DNA of 64,000 nucleotides, taken from assembly GCA_017634385.1 (NCBI GenBank), contig JAGBNN010000001.1:1-64000 (forward strand), written 5' to 3'. The position numbers and the translations under genes were made by a program. The number at the start of each line of letters is the position of its first letter. Positions within the stretch are counted from its first letter, which is position 1. A model generated the notes under the pieces. That model saw only the letters and a program-made list of their open reading frames with translations. It ran no database searches and was not told where the DNA came from. Shown one piece after another: positions 1 through 56,904 of the stretch. The stretch comes from Bacilli bacterium (GTDB taxonomy: Bacteria; Bacillota_I; Bacilli_A; RF39; UBA660).

Positions 1-180
1 CAATTTGATCCGTCTTTATTGAAATAAGTTATTACAAACTTTTTTTCAAAATTTCACTAGTGTGAAATCTTTTTGGCGTGGGATTCTTTTCCAATTTATA
101 ACTACTATTAAAAACTATTGACTTTTAATAGTTAGCCTCCTTTAATAGATTATTATCTTTTTATTAAATAATTCCACTAA
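1..180 (-). other. Unassigned leader-like stretch at left edge
   Basis: No convincing complete gene is visible. On the minus strand a strong Shine-Dalgarno-like AAAGGAGG lies at 135-142, but no ATG, GTG or TTG with an open frame follows at a usable distance. It sits beside a perfect 10-bp inverted repeat (ACTATTAAAA at 104-113, TTTTAATAGT at 123-132), and a second hairpin TTTCAC-TAGT-GTGAAA lies near 51-66. A minus frame is open from about position 55 to the edge, without a start codon. This could be the 5' leader of a gene outside the window or a decayed gene. Confidence 0.3.
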
Positions 181-6508: not shown

Positions 6509-9358
6509 CTAATTAATATCATAATATTCTAATCTAAAACCACCTTTTTGTAAATCTTCATAGGGTACTACATATGAATTTCCCCATGAACTAACTATAA
6601 ATCCATCATCGCATGTTCCTACAACATGTACAGCGTGACCATCGCCTTCCTTCCAACTAGCAGTTGATACATCTCCAGTATTATTTGTACTAATAAATCT
6701 TATATTATTAACTTTTTGTGGGTCTGATAATATACCAAGTTGAACTTGATATCCCATTTTTATATATTTTTCAGTATCATTAATAGCGTTTTGCATACCA
6801 CTATCTGAAAGAGGCATATTATTAAAGTCATGACCATATGTATTAGCAGTTTTAATTTGTTGTATTCCTTTTGTTTTTAGATAATTATTCATTATATCAA
6901 AATTAAAACCATTAGGTGATGACATATATTGTTGATTTTCAGTATATAATTTTTTTGTTTTAGTAAATTGATATGTTTTATTGCCATATGCATCATATAC
7001 TTCTGTTATTTTTAATAAATATTTTTTACCATCATTTGCATCTTTATACCAAAGACCCCCACCATTTGCATAATCATTTGTGTACAAATATATATCAAGT
7101 AATAATTCACCTTGATTTAACTGAAGTTTTCCTGATGAATTCGTAGTATACATATCAAATCCAAACTTTTGTTTAAATCCATTTGGGTCATTTTTATATT
7201 TAGAAAATATTCCATTACATACAGATGCATATGAACATGCGCCTTTACTATCTAAATTTTTCATAATAACTTTTACTTGACTATTACTAAATCCTTGATT
7301 TTTTAATTTATTTTTAAGTCTATTATAATCATTAGGATTAGTTTTTTTCAAATTAGTTAAATATCCTTGGTTTACACCAAATGTTGAATTTCCACCATCA
7401 TACATTTTAAAGAAATTATAATCAATAGCCACAGATGAGTTATTATATTTTTTACCAGTTTGTTTTGATACTATTTTACTATTACCCATTAAAGTTCCTT
7501 TTAGTTGGGTCATGTCTACATTTTTGTTTTTAGATACTTCTTCTGATACTACTTTTAAAAATTCTTCTCTTGATATTTCGTATGTTTTTCCATCTATATT
7601 AACATTAATTTTACTTGTTACAGCACCAGGAGCATTTGTGTAACCAGCTACTAAAACCCCAACAAAGAATGAATAAAAACTATCATTTTCTACTTGTGTT
7701 AAATCTATATTTTCTCCCAATATAACAGCTCTTAATCCAGCATCAATCCACTCTTGTGAAAATTCTTCTGTACCTTCTGATATTAAATTAGCTAAAGTAA
7801 ATCCAGATGTTTTACTTATTCCAGGTATTTTACCTAAGAAATATCCTAATGTTGCTTCACTTGCACCAGAGAATAATCCATATATCCATGCTGATTTTGT
7901 TGACGAACCATTTACTAAAGCTTGATGTTTTGCATTCCCACCTGCAGATACTCCCATTAATGTACTACCTACAGCTGAACCAACTGCTGGCGTAAATAAT
8001 GCTGTTGTTATTGCGCTAGCTGCAATAGCTGGAGTCATATTACCAATAGCAGAATGAACATCATATACTGTTCCATAATATCCTGTATTTTCTGCTAAAT
8101 ATGTTCTTACTATACATGCAGCATATTCATCTGATGTTAAATGTTTGTCATTAACTAATAAATTATACATACCATTATTAAAGTTTGTTACACCATCATC
8201 TATACCTTTAATACTTACAGTACTATACGAAGCAAGAAAACCTAAAATAGTTTCTCCTATATTTTGTCCATCTGTTTGCGAAGCATAATATATTTTAAAA
8301 TCTTCAATCCATTTTGCAGCATCTTCTGCACCTTTTGCTTTATTTATATCATCTGTTAGCAATGACAAATATTTATCTGCTTCTTTTCTTCCACGTGTTT
8401 TAAATAAATAATGATATATTAATTTTTGATCATCATTAGTATACTTATAAATATCACTTAATGATATAGAAGTATCATCTACATTAATTTGAAATATTCC
8501 AAAATCTTCTTCAGTATTATATTTTTTTTGATATTCTATGATTGCTAATAAATCAACATCATCAACATTATAATTCTTATTATTATAATATTCTTTATAT
8601 AAAGCATCTCCATCATAATCTATCAAGAAATTATTAAAATCTTCTGTATCCATTAGATTTTCATATGGTTCGATTTCTTTCATATGTTGTGCTTCTTTTT
8701 TATAATATTCCATTAGCGATACGTCACCTTTTAATTCATCTATTTTAGCTTTTATCGCTGGCATATCATTCAAATCAGGATACTTTTCTATATCTATTAT
8801 AGGCTGTGTATTCATAGCCGCTGTTTGCATTGCTTGATCATATTCTGATTCTAACATTTCTATATCACTATTATATTCAGCAATCAATTCATCAATATAT
8901 GTTATATATTCATCTAAATTTATTTCTTCTTCATTTGCATTTGGATCATAATCTGTTTCTGTATATGTAGATATATCATAATTTAAATCCATTTGTTTTA
9001 TAGTATCTCCTGATTCCATTACTTCTTCATTTATTTTATCTACAAAACCATTTAAATAACTATTTGTACTTGAATCTGTTACAGTACTTGTTCCACTTGC
9101 TAAAGATTCATCTAAATTATCCATATCTTTTATATAATCATCTAACCATGTGTTTAAAGATTGGTATCCTTTTTCAATTGTTGAATAATAATTAGCTATT
9201 TTTTCTCTCATTTGCATAACTACTGGATCAGTGCAAGTACTTATATATCCATTTGTAAAATATTTATAAGAACCTTCATCAAACCCAAATTTTTCAGATG
9301 AAATGCTATTTTTATAACTATTTAAACTCGTTTTATCCGCTACATACGTAACTCTCAC
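6509..9358 (-). CDS. T7SS-type effector with C-terminal papain-like domain
   Basis: A 949-residue secreted-effector candidate. The N-terminal half (1-430) is helical. Residues 441-474 form a small-residue hydrophobic stretch (Ala/Gly/Thr-rich), followed by SEGTEEFSQEWID (about 523-536), a segment seen in many Firmicutes polymorphic toxins. The C-terminus looks like a papain-like cysteine protease fold: Cys708 in GACSYASVCNGI, His908 in GHAVHVVG, and Asn927 in SSWGNSY are candidate catalytic residues. The start is GTG with GAGGGTG 6 nt upstream; there is no signal peptide. It follows three small WXG100-type genes in one operon, which suggests export by a type VII system whose ATPase is not in this window. 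Target unknown. Confidence 0.7.
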   Translation of the reverse strand: MRVTYVADKTSLNSYKNSISSEKFGFDEGSYKYFTNGYISTCTDPVVMQMREKIANYYSTIEKGYQSLNTWLDDYIKDMDNLDESLASGTSTVTDSSTNSYLNGFVDKINEEVMESGDTIKQMDLNYDISTYTETDYDPNANEEEINLDEYITYIDELIAEYNSDIEMLESEYDQAMQTAAMNTQPIIDIEKYPDLNDMPAIKAKIDELKGDVSLMEYYKKEAQHMKEIEPYENLMDTEDFNNFLIDYDGDALYKEYYNNKNYNVDDVDLLAIIEYQKKYNTEEDFGIFQINVDDTSISLSDIYKYTNDDQKLIYHYLFKTRGRKEADKYLSLLTDDINKAKGAEDAAKWIEDFKIYYASQTDGQNIGETILGFLASYSTVSIKGIDDGVTNFNNGMYNLLVNDKHLTSDEYAACIVRTYLAENTGYYGTVYDVHSAIGNMTPAIAASAITTALFTPAVGSAVGSTLMGVSAGGNAKHQALVNGSSTKSAWIYGLFSGASEATLGYFLGKIPGISKTSGFTLANLISEGTEEFSQEWIDAGLRAVILGENIDLTQVENDSFYSFFVGVLVAGYTNAPGAVTSKINVNIDGKTYEISREEFLKVVSEEVSKNKNVDMTQLKGTLMGNSKIVSKQTGKKYNNSSVAIDYNFFKMYDGGNSTFGVNQGYLTNLKKTNPNDYNRLKNKLKNQGFSNSQVKVIMKNLDSKGACSYASVCNGIFSKYKNDPNGFKQKFGFDMYTTNSSGKLQLNQGELLLDIYLYTNDYANGGGLWYKDANDGKKYLLKITEVYDAYGNKTYQFTKTKKLYTENQQYMSSPNGFNFDIMNNYLKTKGIQQIKTANTYGHDFNNMPLSDSGMQNAINDTEKYIKMGYQVQLGILSDPQKVNNIRFISTNNTGDVSTASWKEGDGHAVHVVGTCDDGFIVSSWGNSYVVPYEDLQKGGFRLEYYDIN

Positions 9359-44473: not shown

Positions 44474-44491
44474 CTAAGTATTTCTACTTAG
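44474..44491 (-). terminator. Terminator of nifJ
   Basis: CTAAGTA-TTTC-TACTTAG hairpin overlapping the gene end, followed by TTTTA on the minus strand. Confidence 0.6.
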
Positions 44492-47400
44492 CTTTATAAT
44501 TTTTATAATATTCAAATCTTTCTTTTGCATTTTCTTTATTTTGATTTAATAATTCTTTAGCAAGTTTACTATCTACTGCTTTTAACATAGTATATCTGTT
44601 TTCACCTTCTAAGAACTTATCATATAAATCAAAGTCTGGATTTTTAAAATCAAGTTCAAATTCTTTTTTATCACCATCATATCTAAATATTGGGAAATAT
44701 CCTGATTGTACTGCAAGTCTTTCTTCTTCTATTGATTTACTCATTCCTTTTTTAATACCATGATTTATACATGGAGCATATGCGATTATTAATGATGGTC
44801 CATTATGTTTTGCAGCTTCTTTAAATGCCTTTATAGCTTGAGCCATATTAGCTCCTAAAGATATACAAGCAACATATACATTATCATAATTCATCATCAT
44901 TTTAGCTAAATCTTTCTTATTTGTTTTCTTACCCATTGAATTAAATTTAGCGACTGCACCTTTATGTGTTGATTTACTTGATTGTCCTCCTGTATTTGAA
45001 TATACTTCTGTATCAAGTACTAATATATTTACATCTTCTCCTGAAGCCATTATATGATCTATTCCACCAAATCCTATATCATAACTCCATCCATCTCCAC
45101 CTATTATCCATACATCTTTCTTTTGAATATATCCTTTAAGTGGTATTAATTCTTTTACTTCATCGTAATTTATATTTTCCATTATTTCTTTTGTTATACT
45201 TGAATTATTCTTATTAGATAACCATTTATTAAACATTTCTATATTTTTAAGTCCTAATCTCTTTGTTAATCTATCTTTCATTATATGTTCTATTTTATTT
45301 TGCATTAAATCTATAGTTAATTTCATTCCTAAACCATATTCTGCATTATCTTCAAATAATGAATTAGACCAAGATACATTATAAGGATTAGATGGAAGAG
45401 ATCCTCCATATATAGAAGAACATCCTGTTGCATTTGCAATTATTATTCCATCATTAAATATTTGAGTTAGCATTTTTATATATGGTGTTTCTCCACATCC
45501 TGCGCATGCTCCTGAATATTTAAATAAAGCTTCATTAAACGCAAGTCCTTTTATTGTATTATCCATATATAATTTTTTATTTGTTACATCATTTATTTTA
45601 TTATTTATTCTTTCTACGTTCTTAGCATCTTCCATCATTAGAGCTTTTGCTCCTACTTTACCAGGACAAGTATTTGCACATACTCCACAGCCTGTACAAT
45701 TTTCATAAGAGAATTCTAAAGCAAATTTATATTCAGTATTTCCTATTGTATCTATTACTACTACATTAGGATTATTTTTTATTTCTTTTTCATTTAATAA
45801 TTTAGGAGTAATACATCCATGTGGACATACTATAGAACATTGATTACACTCTATACAATTTTCTTTTATCCATCTTGGTAATCTTTCTGCGATATCTCTT
45901 TTTTCCTTTTTAGTTGTATCGCATTCAAACGTACCATCTTTATGTTCTTCTAAATCTTTAGTAGTTAATTCATCACCTTTAAGATGACTTACATAATCAA
46001 ATACTCCATTTAGATTTGTTTCTTTTTCTTCTAAATCTTTCCATTCACTTTTTACTTTTATTTTTATTATATTTTCTTCTACTTCTTTTATAGAATTTAT
46101 ATTATTTTCTACTATTTCTTTTCCTTTTTTAGTAAATTTATCTTTTATAGATTTTTTTACTCCTTTTAAATATTCTTCATATGGAAGAAGTTTAGTTATA
46201 TTTATAATAGCTGATTCCATTATAGTACTTATTTTATTTGGAATATTATTTTTACTTGCTATTTTATATGCATCTATTATATAAAATTTAATATTCTTTT
46301 TAGCAAGTTGTTTCTTTATATTATTTGGAAGGAACTTTTCTAATTCTTCACCTTTCTTATCTGTATTTAATATAAATATTCCATTTTTTCTTATTCCAGA
46401 TAATACATCATATCTATTTAAATAAATATCTTTAGTTACTACTACTATATGAGGATTTTCTATATAGTAAGATGCTTTTATTTGTTCTTTATCTATTCTT
46501 ATATGACTCTTTGTTACACCACCTGATTTTTTAGAATCATATTGGAAATATCCTTGAGTAAATCCTTCTGTTGTTTCTCCTATTTGTTTTACAATATCTT
46601 TAGATGCTGAAATCATTCCATCTGATCCATATCCATATATTAACATTTCAATATTTTTCTTAGTATTTTTTAATTTTGCTTTCTTTAAACTTTTATTAGT
46701 TATATCATCTGTTATTCCTATAGTAAATGAATTAATTGGATTTTTACTATCTAAATTTTTATATACTGCATATAAATCTTCTAAATTAGTATCTTTTGAA
46801 GAAAGACCATATCTTCCTCCTACTACAAATGGTTTATTTTTAACATCATTTAATATATTTACTACATCAGTATATAATACATCTCCAGTTGCTCCTGCTT
46901 CTTTTGCTCTATCTAATACTGCTATTTTTCTTACTGTTTTTGGAAGTACGTCCATAAAATATTTTTTAGAAAATGGTCTAAATAAGTGTACTTCTATTAA
47001 ACCTACTTCTTCTTTATTTTCATTTAATATATCAACTAATTCTTTTATTGATGAACATACTGATCCCATTGCTACTATAACCTTAGTAGCATTTTTTGAA
47101 CCATAATAATTAAATGGTTTATAATTTGTTTTAAATTTATCATTTACTTTTTCCATATAGTCATTTACTATATCAGGCATTTGTTCATAATATTTATTTC
47201 TAGCTTCTATATTTTGAAAATATACATCATCATTTTGAGCAGTTCCTCTTATTTTTTTAGAATATAACATACTTTCTTTTCTAAAATTATCTATTTCTTT
47301 CTTAGGAATTAAACTCTTTATATCGTTCATATCAAATAATTCTATTTTATTAAGTTCATGACTTGTTCTAAATCCATCAAAGAAATTTACAAATGGTATT

Positions 47401-47888
47401 CTTCCTTTTAATGTTGATAGATAAGATATTAATGTCATATAAGGAACATCTTGTACTGAAGAAGATGCTAAATAAGAAAATCCACTACTTCTTGTAGCAT
47501 ATATATCAGAATGATCTCCGAATATGCTAAGTGCATGTGTTGCGACTGTTCTTGATGCTACATTTATTACACATGGTAGCATTTCTCCTGCTATTTTATA
47601 CATTGAAGGTATCATTAATAAAAGTCCTTGTGATGATGTATATGTACTTGCAATTGTACCTGTTTGAAGTGCTCCATGACAAAGTGCTATAGCTCCTGCT
47701 TCACTTTGCATTTCTACTAACTTTACTTCGCTATTAAATATATTTTTTCTTCCGTTGTTTGCCCATACATCAATATATTCACTCATTGGTGAAGCTGGAG
47801 TTATTGGATATATTCCAGCTACTTCTGTAAACATATATGATACATAACTACATGCTTCGTTACCATCTATTACTTTATATTTTTTCAT
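44484..47888 (-). CDS. nifJ: Pyruvate:ferredoxin (flavodoxin) oxidoreductase
   Basis: An 1134-residue single-chain PFOR that oxidises pyruvate to acetyl-CoA and CO2, reducing ferredoxin. Domains in order: N-terminal pyrimidine-binding domain (YPITPASPMSEY), transketolase-C-like domain, two [4Fe-4S] ferredoxin sites (CIECNQCSIVCPHGC and CTGCGVCANTCPG, about 700-760), proximal cluster CAGCGETPY, and TPP-binding GGDGWSYDIGFGGIDH. The C-terminal APCINHG Cys is present. Complete for the family. It indicates anaerobic pyruvate metabolism. ATG follows AGGTGGTAAT. Confidence 0.96.
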   Translation of the reverse strand: MKKYKVIDGNEACSYVSYMFTEVAGIYPITPASPMSEYIDVWANNGRKNIFNSEVKLVEMQSEAGAIALCHGALQTGTIASTYTSSQGLLLMIPSMYKIAGEMLPCVINVASRTVATHALSIFGDHSDIYATRSSGFSYLASSSVQDVPYMTLISYLSTLKGRIPFVNFFDGFRTSHELNKIELFDMNDIKSLIPKKEIDNFRKESMLYSKKIRGTAQNDDVYFQNIEARNKYYEQMPDIVNDYMEKVNDKFKTNYKPFNYYGSKNATKVIVAMGSVCSSIKELVDILNENKEEVGLIEVHLFRPFSKKYFMDVLPKTVRKIAVLDRAKEAGATGDVLYTDVVNILNDVKNKPFVVGGRYGLSSKDTNLEDLYAVYKNLDSKNPINSFTIGITDDITNKSLKKAKLKNTKKNIEMLIYGYGSDGMISASKDIVKQIGETTEGFTQGYFQYDSKKSGGVTKSHIRIDKEQIKASYYIENPHIVVVTKDIYLNRYDVLSGIRKNGIFILNTDKKGEELEKFLPNNIKKQLAKKNIKFYIIDAYKIASKNNIPNKISTIMESAIINITKLLPYEEYLKGVKKSIKDKFTKKGKEIVENNINSIKEVEENIIKIKVKSEWKDLEEKETNLNGVFDYVSHLKGDELTTKDLEEHKDGTFECDTTKKEKRDIAERLPRWIKENCIECNQCSIVCPHGCITPKLLNEKEIKNNPNVVVIDTIGNTEYKFALEFSYENCTGCGVCANTCPGKVGAKALMMEDAKNVERINNKINDVTNKKLYMDNTIKGLAFNEALFKYSGACAGCGETPYIKMLTQIFNDGIIIANATGCSSIYGGSLPSNPYNVSWSNSLFEDNAEYGLGMKLTIDLMQNKIEHIMKDRLTKRLGLKNIEMFNKWLSNKNNSSITKEIMENINYDEVKELIPLKGYIQKKDVWIIGGDGWSYDIGFGGIDHIMASGEDVNILVLDTEVYSNTGGQSSKSTHKGAVAKFNSMGKKTNKKDLAKMMMNYDNVYVACISLGANMAQAIKAFKEAAKHNGPSLIIAYAPCINHGIKKGMSKSIEEERLAVQSGYFPIFRYDGDKKEFELDFKNPDFDLYDKFLEGENRYTMLKAVDSKLAKELLNQNKENAKERFEYYKNYKAK

Positions 47889-49886: not shown

Positions 49887-50174
49887 CTATATTGATTTAT
49901 TCGAAAAATAATCATCAAATTTTTTATATGAATTTAAAGATAATCTTTGTTTAGTTATCATTTCTGTTGTTTTTTTATAATACTCATTACATTGATTAAT
50001 ATATTCTTCCATTATAGAAGTGAAATTTTTTGCACTAGATGATTTCCAATATTGATTTAAATCAATAAGTAAGTCTTTCATTTTTTTTGTAGAACTATTT
50101 ATTATATCTAATGAATTTTCAAATTCCGAAACATTTTTTAAAAACATATCATTTTCTATATAAATATCTTTCAC
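49887..50174 (-). CDS. WXG-like small protein (operon leader gene)
   Basis: A 95-residue helical hairpin with the turn NQYWKSSSAKNF, a WXG-like core (Ser for Gly). Similar in plan to the proteins at 9853-10134 and 10143-10439. It is the first gene behind a promoter with an overlapping palindrome. Confidence 0.65.
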   Translation of the reverse strand: MKDIYIENDMFLKNVSEFENSLDIINSSTKKMKDLLIDLNQYWKSSSAKNFTSIMEEYINQCNEYYKKTTEMITKQRLSLNSYKKFDDYFSNKSI

Positions 50175-54849: not shown

Positions 54850-55371
54850 CTATTTTTTAAATATATTTAATATCTTCCCAACTCTAAATGTTATACTTTC
54901 TGAATTCTTTATTGCTTTTGTTTTACCATATGCTTTTCCTGTAATAGTTAAACTTGCGATTATTGCAGTTGTGATTAATACTACAAAAGATGTATTTAAA
55001 TTATAATCATTAGCAATTGTTGTTGCTACTAAAACTCCTGCAGAACCTGATACTACTCCACATACATCTCCTACAACATCATTACATATAGAAGCAAGTT
55101 TATCTGAATTTTTTAAAAGTTTAACTGAATGATAAGATCCTTTTACTTTTTTTGATGCCATTGAATGAAATGGAGTTTCTTCTGCGGCTGTTATAGCAAC
55201 TCCTATCATATCAAATATTATTGCTATAAAAATAAATACTAATATTACTAATATTCCTAATATTGTATTTATTTTTGGTATAAATGATTCAGATACTAAT
55301 GACATTAATATTGATAAACCAAAAGAAAGTAAACATACTGTTATTAACCATTTAATTCTATTATTCTTCAT
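54850..55371 (-). CDS. oapA: OapA-like (CorB/DUF21-related) membrane protein
   Basis: A 173-residue integral membrane protein with helices at about 7-27, 35-58, 105-125 and 130-150. The middle cytosolic region reads AAEETPFHSMASKKVKGSY, then NSDKLASICNDVVGDVCGVVSGSAG; this resembles the OLE-associated protein (OapA) and the DUF21 half of CorB-type Mg transporters. OapA binds OLE RNA at the membrane in Bacillus halodurans. The ATG at 55371 has AGGTGA 5 nt upstream; an ATG 18 nt earlier would include that site. It lies 27 bp downstream of the terminator of the long RNA at 55398-56014, as oapA does behind ole. Confidence 0.72.
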   Translation of the reverse strand: MKNNRIKWLITVCLLSFGLSILMSLVSESFIPKINTILGILVILVFIFIAIIFDMIGVAITAAEETPFHSMASKKVKGSYHSVKLLKNSDKLASICNDVVGDVCGVVSGSAGVLVATTIANDYNLNTSFVVLITTAIIASLTITGKAYGKTKAIKNSESITFRVGKILNIFKK

Positions 55372-55397
55372 TTTATCACCTATATTCATTATAACAT

Positions 55398-55421
55398 AAA
55401 AAAACCAGATATACTGGTTTT
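55398..55421 (-). terminator. Terminator of the long noncoding RNA
   Basis: AAACCAG and CTGGTTT arms around a 5-nt loop, followed by seven T on the minus strand. The oapA-like ribosome site lies 15-20 bp beyond, so oapA needs read-through or a promoter inside the RNA. Confidence 0.85.
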
Positions 55422-56014
55422 ATTTCATTAAAAAAATATGATTGGTACTAATATAATTAACTTTGCGTCATAGGTCAAGTAGGATTTCCCACGAATCAAC
55501 TTTTCGTTACCAAAAAGCGGTTCCCCTTTAATGATTGTATATACCGTTACCTAAGTATACGACTTGATTGCCACTTAGTACGCACTGCAAACTTATATCA
55601 GCATACAGCCTAGGAGATTTCCTCCCTGATAGGTATCTATTATTAGTCTTTTTTGCAAATACAATTTCATACAGTTTAATCCATATAAATAATTTTGGCC
55701 AAAAATATATCTACACACTCTATAATCCCAATGTATTCACTCAAGGCAAGCTACTCTACTAAGGACTCTCGTCACAAAGTAGGTTTATCTTAATCTATAC
55801 TAATTTCGGTTTAGTAAGAAGATTAAGTCTCTACGTTAAATGGGAGTTATCTTATATGCCATTATAAGTTTCCCATATAACTAGTCTTCCAGCACCCACC
55901 CGAATCTGGGCGAAACAAGCAAGCACAAGAAGCTTCACAGGTATGCTCTTTAACGAATTTTTAGGCTCGTCTTCATAATAGATGTATCAACTAGGATACT
56001 GCACCCTTCATACG
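55398..56014 (-). ncRNA. ole: Large structured RNA, probable OLE RNA
   Basis: About 617 nt with no usable ORF, bounded by a consensus promoter and an intrinsic terminator. It is much less AT-rich than other intergenic DNA and contains many local hairpins: GTATC-CTAGTT-GATAC near the 5' end, CCC/GGG around AGATTC, a long stem at 55789-55827 (CTTAATCT with AGATTAAG, then TACTAA with TTAGTA), and GGAG-GAAAT-CTCC. Size and the following OapA-like gene match OLE RNA (about 610 nt; ornate, large, extremophilic). RNase P RNA and tmRNA signatures are absent. ROOL RNA (about 580 nt) is the main alternative. Confidence 0.68.
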
Positions 56015-56020
56015 TGTATA

Positions 56021-56049
56021 ATCTTACCATATTTTCACTATTTTGTCAA
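56021..56049 (-). promoter_or_regulatory. Promoter of the long RNA
   Basis: TTGACA (perfect -35) and TAAGAT with 17-bp spacing. Confidence 0.78.
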
Positions 56050-56084: not shown

Positions 56085-56104
56085 AAGAAAATTACTTTTC
56101 TTCA
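56085..56104 (-). terminator. Terminator of the zinc-ribbon membrane protein gene
   Basis: GAAGAAAA-TTAC-TTTTCTTC hairpin with T run on the minus strand; overlaps the stop. Confidence 0.75.
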
Positions 56105-56904
56105 TAACAATAATACATATTATATGTTTTTACATTCATTATAACACCATGCTTTTTAGTGTTTTTAGCTGCTATTCCAAATTCATATTCTGATGCATAT
56201 GGTGTATCTTGTTTAATTCCATTTTCATAGAATTCTTCACCTGTAAGATTAAGACTATAATATTTATATTCTCCACTTGCATTTGTTTTGTCTAAATCAG
56301 AGAATGTATATGTTCCTTTAACATAATTATTTTTTGTATCTCCATATTTTCCCCATAAGAAAGTATTATCTCTATTTAATTCTAATCTTACTATATAATT
56401 ACTAGATTCACCTGATCCTGAAAAACTTTTACAATTATATTTACCAGCAACATAATTATCTGATGTTTCTCTTTCAAGTTCATTATAAAATTTATTTAAT
56501 GCTTTATTTATATCACTACCATCTTTTCCTGCTTCTTCAGCAAAAGTACCTATTCCTACTGCAGCAATTAAAATTGGGAATACTACAAATGCCATTATAA
56601 TTGATATTAATATTGATGCTGTATTTAATATTATACCTGAAAATCTTTTTCCTTTTTTACATAAGTTAACTATACCAAGTACTAACCCTACTATTGCAAG
56701 TGGTATTGATAAGAATATTGGTAGAAATACAACGCATGTAACTGATAATACTAAAGCTATAATACCAATTATCATTGATGCAGTTGCCATTTTTTCTTTT
56801 TTCTTTCCTTCTTCTTTGATTTCGTTGGTTAATGAATTTCCACATTTACTACAAAATTTTACTCCTTCATTATTTTCTGCTCCACACTTTGAACAAAAAT
56901 TCAT
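56092..56904 (-). CDS. Zinc-ribbon membrane protein
   Basis: A 270-residue protein. An N-terminal zinc ribbon (CSKCGAENNEGVKFCSKCG, residues 4-22) precedes a linker, two to three membrane helices (about 40-125, with the DUF4190-like GLVLGIVNLCKKGKR turn), and an extracellular beta domain (about 155-270) with YNCKSFSGSGESSNYIV. Probably a sensor-like or housekeeping membrane protein; no specific role known. Confidence 0.75.
   Translation of the reverse strand: MNFCSKCGAENNEGVKFCSKCGNSLTNEIKEEGKKKEKMATASMIIGIIALVLSVTCVVFLPIFLSIPLAIVGLVLGIVNLCKKGKRFSGIILNTASILISIIMAFVVFPILIAAVGIGTFAEEAGKDGSDINKALNKFYNELERETSDNYVAGKYNCKSFSGSGESSNYIVRLELNRDNTFLWGKYGDTKNNYVKGTYTFSDLDKTNASGEYKYYSLNLTGEEFYENGIKQDTPYASEYEFGIAAKNTKKHGVIMNVKTYNMYYCYEEK

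What the first reader, a model, noticed from the sequence alone, without database searches (positions are those of the whole stretch)
54850..56049. Probable OLE RNA with OapA partner in a gut-type Bacilli
A ~617-nt transcription unit (TTGACA-17-TAAGAT promoter to a 7-bp terminator) with no ORF and many hairpins is followed 27 bp later by a membrane protein with AAEETPFHSMASKK and CNDVVGDVCG. OLE RNA (about 610 nt) with OapA is a membrane ribonucleoprotein of extremophilic and anaerobic Firmicutes. Finding it beside typA and wall genes in an AT-rich non-extremophile would widen its range. Identity as OLE is inference from size, layout and the protein.
Basis: partly seen in the sequence, partly recalled or inferred. 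Interest (0 to 1): 0.88.

Follow-up and report, generated by a model that had tools for sequence, protein, structure and literature searches.

The report
OLE RNA in a gut-type bacterium
The stretch is a gene for OLE, one of the largest structured non-coding RNAs of bacteria, next to the gene for its membrane partner OapA, in an uncultured small-genome relative of Bacilli; OLE in such gut bacteria was already reported in 2024, so it is a solid new member and not a new kind.

Summary
Rfam OLE (RF01071) matches 56023-55426 on the minus strand over its whole length, 355.5 bits, E 7.8e-101. The downstream gene has the published OapA marks: CNNM-like fold, DxxxD motif, no CBS domain. OLE lies between its own promoter and an 8-pair terminator; the promoter pattern recurs at 30 of 38 related loci against 32 of 7400 shuffled stretches. 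98 of 149 base pairs change on both sides across 34 sequences, above all 500 shuffles. The range-widening claim is out of date: PMC11332333 (2024) reports OLE with OapA, largely without OapB and OapC, in uncultured RF39 and TANB77 gut bacteria. My counts agree: in the order of the nearest relative OLE is in 119 of 193 genomes and OapA in 119, 118 having both; OapB is found in 0 of 193 and the OapC family above cut-off in 0 of 193. The oddest thing is in relatives, not the window: 378-381-nt OLE RNAs without stems P5-P8, so without the OapC and bS21 sites, directly before oapA.

The parts
56044..56049 (-). -35 hexamer TTGACA of the OLE promoter
   Evidence: pattern conserved in 30 of 38 related loci
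56021..56026 (-). -10 hexamer TAAGAT of the OLE promoter (17-nt spacer)
55426..56023 (-). OLE RNA, whole Rfam model; its first bases overlap the -10, so the transcript probably starts near 56014
   Evidence: cmscan 355.5 bits, E 7.8e-101, model 1-616; pairing and covariation
55401..55421 (-). intrinsic terminator between OLE and oapA (8-pair stem, 5-base loop, then T run)
55388..55398 (-). TATGTTATAAT, possible extended -10 promoter for oapA; overlaps the outer ATG at 55389, which speaks for the inner start
   Evidence: sequence; same string after OLE in L007, L003 and (as TATGTTATACT) L084; function inferred
54850..55371 (-). oapA, 173 aa from the likely start (listed ORF 54850-55389, 179 aa)
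56092..56904 (-). zinc-ribbon membrane protein gene upstream (context, not part of the particle)
   Evidence: Pfam Zn_Ribbon_1; same position in L007 and L084
50292..52151 (-). typA/bipA (context; follows oapA in L002, L003, L004, L005 and L007)
   Evidence: TIGR01394 906 bits

Best explanation
This is a complete, probably working OLE RNA gene with its partner gene oapA, in an uncultured, AT-rich, probably anaerobic small-genome Bacilli lineage (RF39-type, inferred). The RNA is made from its own sigma-70 type promoter and ends at its own terminator (inferred from conserved sequence). It should take the OLE fold, pair with a second copy through kissing loops including a self-complementary L9.3, and bind the four-helix membrane protein OapA, giving a membrane-bound RNA-protein particle (by homology with Halalkalibacterium halodurans OLE). 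Its relatives lack OapB, the OapC family and MpfA, so here the particle is most likely the reduced OLE-OapA form, perhaps with ribosomal protein bS21, doing a stress or Mg2+ job that MpfA-type proteins do elsewhere (inference). The biochemical activity of OLE is not known in any organism.
For: OLE model hit; 133 of 149 pairs standard; covariation over 34 sequences; conserved promoter; L9.3 loop palindromic and switching between GGCC 22, AGCT 6 and GTAC 5 of 34; OapA marks; 118 of the 120 genomes of the order sample that have OLE or OapA have both; OapC family above cut-off 0 of 9 and 0 of 193 against 28 of 40 comparison genomes; OapB 0 of 9 and 0 of 193 against 28 of 40; CNNM hits in the 9 nearest genomes are oapA alone; bS21 in 176 of 193.
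Against: No expression data. The window's own genome is not held, so absence of OapB, OapC and MpfA rests on relatives, most of them draft genomes of unstated completeness. OLE score (355.5) is below those of Oscillospiraceae-type OLE (376-472), so the RNA has drifted. In some close relatives there is no terminator and OLE reads straight into oapA (L001, L006, L008, L051, L124). 8 of 38 loci lack the promoter pattern. bS21 is present in nearly every genome of the order, OLE or not, so its presence is no sign of partnership.
Confidence: 0.88

Rival explanations
1. OLE here works mainly in cis, as a long leader or attenuator that controls oapA through the terminator between them.
For: A terminator lies between OLE and oapA in the window, and in several relatives OLE runs directly into the oapA ribosome-binding site.
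Against: In G002 OLE and oapA are on different contigs, each with one of the window's flanks; in L003 and L004 about 0.95 kb and in G127 about 1.4 kb lie between them, and in G211 they too are on different contigs. A strict terminator was found in only 9 of 38 loci. OLE acts in trans with OapA in H. halodurans (PMC9723947, passages).
Confidence: 0.08
2. A decaying OLE, a pseudogene on its way out in a shrinking genome.
For: Relatives have small genomes (0.8-1.4 Mb); 73 of 193 genomes of the order sample have neither OLE nor OapA; the order also holds shortened OLE RNAs.
Against: Strong compensatory change across the order, conserved promoter, intact oapA, retained palindrome.
Confidence: 0.03
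3. Another large RNA class (ROOL, GOLLD or new) that only resembles OLE in size.
For: Size and AT-rich gut host would also fit ROOL.
Against: Only OLE reaches its threshold there, at seven times its gathering score and over the whole model.
Confidence: 0.005

Closest known systems
OLE RNA of Halalkalibacterium halodurans with OapA, OapB and OapC (RF01071; PMC9723947, PMC12265935, PMC12286853, passages seen)
   Same: Whole OLE model, oapA next door, loops reported as dimer contacts retained, GNRA-type loops at the stems described as the OapB site retained (reading).
   Different: Own promoter and terminator instead of a place inside a long operon; relatives have no OapB and no OapC family protein.
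Variant 2 OLE of RF39 and variant 1 OLE of TANB77 gut bacteria (PMC11332333, section 4 read)
   Same: Same kind of host (inferred), OLE with OapA, no OapB or OapC.
   Different: Variant 2 lacks P7 and P8; the window's RNA aligns through that region with hairpins and is near full length, 598 against 616 model positions. In the order sample 81 of 119 OLE hits are 543-618 nt, 36 are 479-541 nt and 2 are 378-381 nt.
MpfA/CorB-type CNNM Mg2+ transporters
   Same: The OapA model's best solved match is archaeal CorB 7m1t (Foldseek E 0.011, TM 0.61 by query; no match under E 0.001).
   Different: No CBS or CorC domain; DxxxD motif, which CNNM domains lack according to PMC11332333.

Membership tests
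OLE RNA (RF01071) | Score above Rfam's gathering threshold over the whole model | tested here: met
   355.5 bits against 50, model 1-616
OLE RNA (RF01071) | Conserved secondary structure supported by covariation | tested here: met
   the structure is Rfam's, carried over through the window row
OLE RNA (RF01071) | oapA in the same genome, usually in tandem | tested here: met
   Window layout; 34 of 38 related loci adjacent; 118 of 120 genomes
OLE RNA (RF01071) | Self-complementary L9.3 loop (dimer contact) | tested here: met
   UUUGGCCAAA in the window
OLE RNA (RF01071) | Transcribed, membrane-located, stress phenotype | not testable with these tools
   Needs experiments
OLE RNA (RF01071) | k-turn beside P5 (OapC site) | tested here: inconclusive
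   5' strand pattern (C, 3 bases, GA) found in 33 of 34, but the 3' strand could not be placed reliably
OLE variant 2 (RF39) | P7 and P8 missing | tested here: not met
   The window aligns with paired hairpins through that part of the model; assignment of P numbers to model hairpins is mine, from the papers' descriptions
OapA | DxxxD motif | tested here: met
   DVVGD; both D invariant in 29 of 29
OapA | Short CNNM-like membrane protein without CBS or CorC domains, four membrane helices | tested here: met
   173 aa, only CNNM below cut-off; four long helices in a model of pLDDT 84.8; CorB as best fold match
OapA | Direct sequence match to H. halodurans OapA | not tested
   That sequence was not at hand
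Full OLE particle with OapB and OapC | OapB and OapC genes present | tested here: inconclusive
   Absent from the nearest relatives (0 of 9 each) and the order sample (0 of 193 each, OapC family counted above cut-off); the window's own genome is not held

The most novel reading that the evidence does not exclude
In this order OLE has been cut down to its working core. Beside the near-full-length form of the window there are 378-381-nt mini-OLE RNAs (L051, L138, L139) without P5-P8, that is without the OapC k-turn, the bS21 site and the L5-L6 dimer contact, but with the 5' conserved block, the P4-type hairpin, a shortened P9 carrying a UGAUCA palindrome, the 3' domain, and oapA directly downstream. 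If functional, they show that OLE needs only OapA, one or two dimer contacts and the 3' domain, and they offer a small natural construct for finding its biochemical activity.
Probability: 0.5. Interest if true: 0.62.

Novelty: new member of a known kind. Interest (0 to 1): 0.36.

Why it matters
OLE is one of the largest conserved bacterial RNAs whose biochemical job is unknown. This locus is a clean example from a lineage whose relatives keep the RNA and OapA together (118 of the 120 genomes that have either) but show neither OapB nor OapC. It helps to separate what is essential (OLE fold, palindromic L9.3, OapA) from what is optional. It does not widen the known range, since RF39-type gut bacteria were already listed. 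The mini-OLE RNAs of the same order would matter more, as natural minimal constructs.

Tried and rejected
Considered and rejected: ROOL, GOLLD or another RNA family; an ordinary CorB/MpfA for the protein; a pseudogene.

Led nowhere or only partly: a search of OapA against solved-structure sequences gave nothing alone and one irrelevant hit at E 2 as a profile. No NCBIfam model matched it. The k-turn test was inconclusive for the 3' strand. Folding the shortened P9 of the three mini-OLE RNAs alone did not consistently give a hairpin that shows the palindrome in its loop, and none was clearly more stable than shuffles (z -0.4, -1.9, -1.0). KOW-domain hits have the sizes of L24 and NusG and could not test OapB, so I used a profile of 3 OapB sequences, one of which matches the solved OLE-associated protein B 7k9b at E 1.4e-8. 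The order-wide OapB search had no positive inside it, as the tool warns; its control is, 28 of 40 comparison genomes, 3 of which supplied the profile. PF01248 holds other L7Ae proteins too, so its presence in comparison genomes is not proof of OapC. Infernal was run with stricter filters over the order, so OLE counts there are lower bounds. The pairing of OLE and OapA genomes was made by comparing the lists by eye.

Literature: searches. PMC11332333: outline, passages and section 4 in full. PMC9723947, PMC12054373, PMC12286853, PMC12265935: passages only. Others: listings only. Supplements were not open, so I cannot say whether a supplement lists 378-nt OLE RNAs; I ran no search for that length.

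Full report
What is there. On the minus strand, between a zinc-ribbon membrane protein gene (56904-56092) and a small membrane protein gene, lies a 598-nt match to the whole Rfam OLE model (56023-55426, 355.5 bits, E 7.8e-101). A consensus-type promoter ends at its 5' edge and an 8-pair terminator follows its 3' end. The promoter match alone is not beyond chance in this AT-rich stretch (8 found, 7.1 expected). What makes it credible is that 30 of 38 related OLE loci, window included, have TTGAC[AT]-16..18-TAnnnT at the same place, 24 of them with a 17-nt spacer, against 32 of 7400 shuffled upstream stretches. Of the 8 without it, one (L122) has no upstream sequence. None of 13 Oscillospiraceae-type OLE loci has it.

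The RNA. 133 of 149 modelled pairs are standard in the window, against at most 53% in 1000 shuffles. In an alignment of 34 OLE RNAs of 543-618 nt, from the window, its relatives and their order, 85.6% of cells pair against 73.7% in shuffles; 98 of 149 pairs change on both sides; sliding one side by 1-3 columns drops pairing to 40-45%. The alignment is MAFFT's and was not fitted to the structure, which is Rfam's, carried over through the window row. The shorter OLE RNAs of the order were not in this alignment. The loop that the cryo-EM paper calls L9.3 (PMC12286853, passages) is self-complementary in the window (UUUGGCCAAA). Over the 34 sequences its core is GGCC in 22, AGCT in 6, GTAC in 5, and the loop is missing in 1. 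The paper names GGCC, GAUC and AGCU; GTAC extends the same pattern. A central 6-base palindrome occurs in 26 of 33 against a shuffle mean of 7.0 and maximum of 16. P numbers are assigned to model hairpins by me from the papers' descriptions.

The protein. The downstream ORF gives 173 aa from the likely start. Pfam finds only the CNNM membrane domain, below its cut-off (25.2 against 28.4 bits); 20 of 29 aligned relatives match it at E 0.01. The DxxxD motif, which PMC11332333 says distinguishes OapA from CNNM domains, is invariant in 29 of 29. The model (pLDDT 84.8) has four long helices, and its best solved match is archaeal CorB 7m1t (E 0.011, TM 0.61; none below E 0.001). PMC11332333 reports the same resemblance, to CorB 7M1U, for H. 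halodurans OapA. Of 837 related proteins (120 listed), sources name a few, as DUF21 domain or hypothetical protein and one (P0108) as CorB.

Relatives. Of the 9 nearest genomes searched (0.8-1.4 Mb), 8 have OLE. In the order of the nearest relative OLE is in 119 of 193 genomes and OapA in 119 of 193; 118 have both, G112 only OLE, G175 only OapA. The L7Ae family that contains OapC gives no match over its cut-off in the 9 nearest or in the 193 (one weaker hit inside a 618-aa frame), but does in 28 of 40 comparison genomes. OapB is found in 0 of 9 and 0 of 193 against 28 of 40. In comparison loci L125, L126 and L128 an OapB gene lies between map and infA; in 8 of the 9 nearest genomes map runs directly into infA, and in G001 adk does. 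CNNM hits are oapA alone in 7 of 9 and absent in 2, so no MpfA was seen, while 12 of 14 control genomes ring. bS21 is in 176 of 193, with or without OLE. The tool does not name the order; titles of the nearest records read Bacilli, Clostridiales, Firmicutes, Erysipelotrichaceae or Tenericutes, two from rumen or reticulum. RF39 is my inference from these, genome size and PMC11332333.

Layout. An oapA frame directly follows OLE in 34 of 38 related loci; it is about 0.95 kb on in L003 and L004, about 1.4 kb on in G127, and on another contig in G002 and, among genomes outside the 38, in G211. In G002 the glycosyltransferase and zinc-ribbon genes precede OLE, and typA follows oapA, so the window's two flanks sit on two contigs; a real rearrangement or an assembly fault would both look so. 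This argues against OLE being only a leader of oapA. A strict terminator after OLE was found in 9 of 38. In L001, L006, L008, L051 and L124 OLE runs directly to the oapA ribosome-binding site.

How it most likely works. Shown here: a conserved transcription unit by sequence, a conserved fold, a conserved palindromic loop, and near-perfect co-occurrence with OapA. From the literature (passages): OLE forms a dimer without protein (PMC12286853); OapA binds near P2 and P4a and the RNA sits at the membrane (PMC9723947); its loss makes H. halodurans sensitive to cold, alcohols and Mg2+ (PMC9723947, PMC12054373). Inferred: in this lineage the particle is OLE plus OapA, perhaps with bS21, standing in for MpfA-type Mg2+ handling. 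The biochemical activity is unknown.

What is new. The identity is as good as certain, but OLE in RF39 and TANB77 gut bacteria, largely without OapB and OapC, was reported in 2024 (PMC11332333). The window adds a near-full-length member. In the same order sample 36 of 119 OLE hits are 479-541 nt and 2 are 378-381 nt; a third 378-nt one lies in L051. These three lack most of model positions 74-277, that is P5-P8, score 134-139 bits, and sit directly before oapA. They keep the 5' conserved block, the P4-type hairpin and the 3' domain, though part of the P13-type stem does not pair in register. PMC11332333 describes variants with short or missing P7 and P8 in the text that I read; its supplement was not open. 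The three are too alike for covariation to test their fold, and folding their P9 alone was inconclusive.

Noticed in passing
L051:4626-5003, L138:1001-1378, L139:1001-1381: Mini-OLE RNAs of 378-381 nt without P5-P8, with a UGAUCA palindrome in the shortened P9 and oapA directly downstream.
   Followed up: partly
L084 and L002 (both genome G002): OLE and oapA lie on different contigs, each keeping one of the window's flanks: glycosyltransferase and zinc ribbon beside OLE, typA beside oapA. Rearrangement or assembly fault not told apart.
   Followed up: partly
Alignment A2, rows L101, L106, L110, L114, L123: The L9.3 palindrome core is GUAC in these five, a core not named beside GGCC, GAUC and AGCU in the passages that I saw of PMC12286853.
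   Followed up: partly
Order of G001, 73 of 193 genomes: Neither OLE nor OapA found, so the pair seems to be lost or gained together inside one order.
   Followed up: no
window 49887-50174, minus strand: 95-aa WXG100-like protein, below the Pfam cut-off (20.2 against 27.3 bits).
   Followed up: no
window 6509-9358, minus strand: 949-aa ORF without any Pfam match at E 0.001.
   Followed up: no
window 44484-47888, minus strand: Pyruvate:ferredoxin oxidoreductase, which fits an anaerobic host.
   Followed up: no
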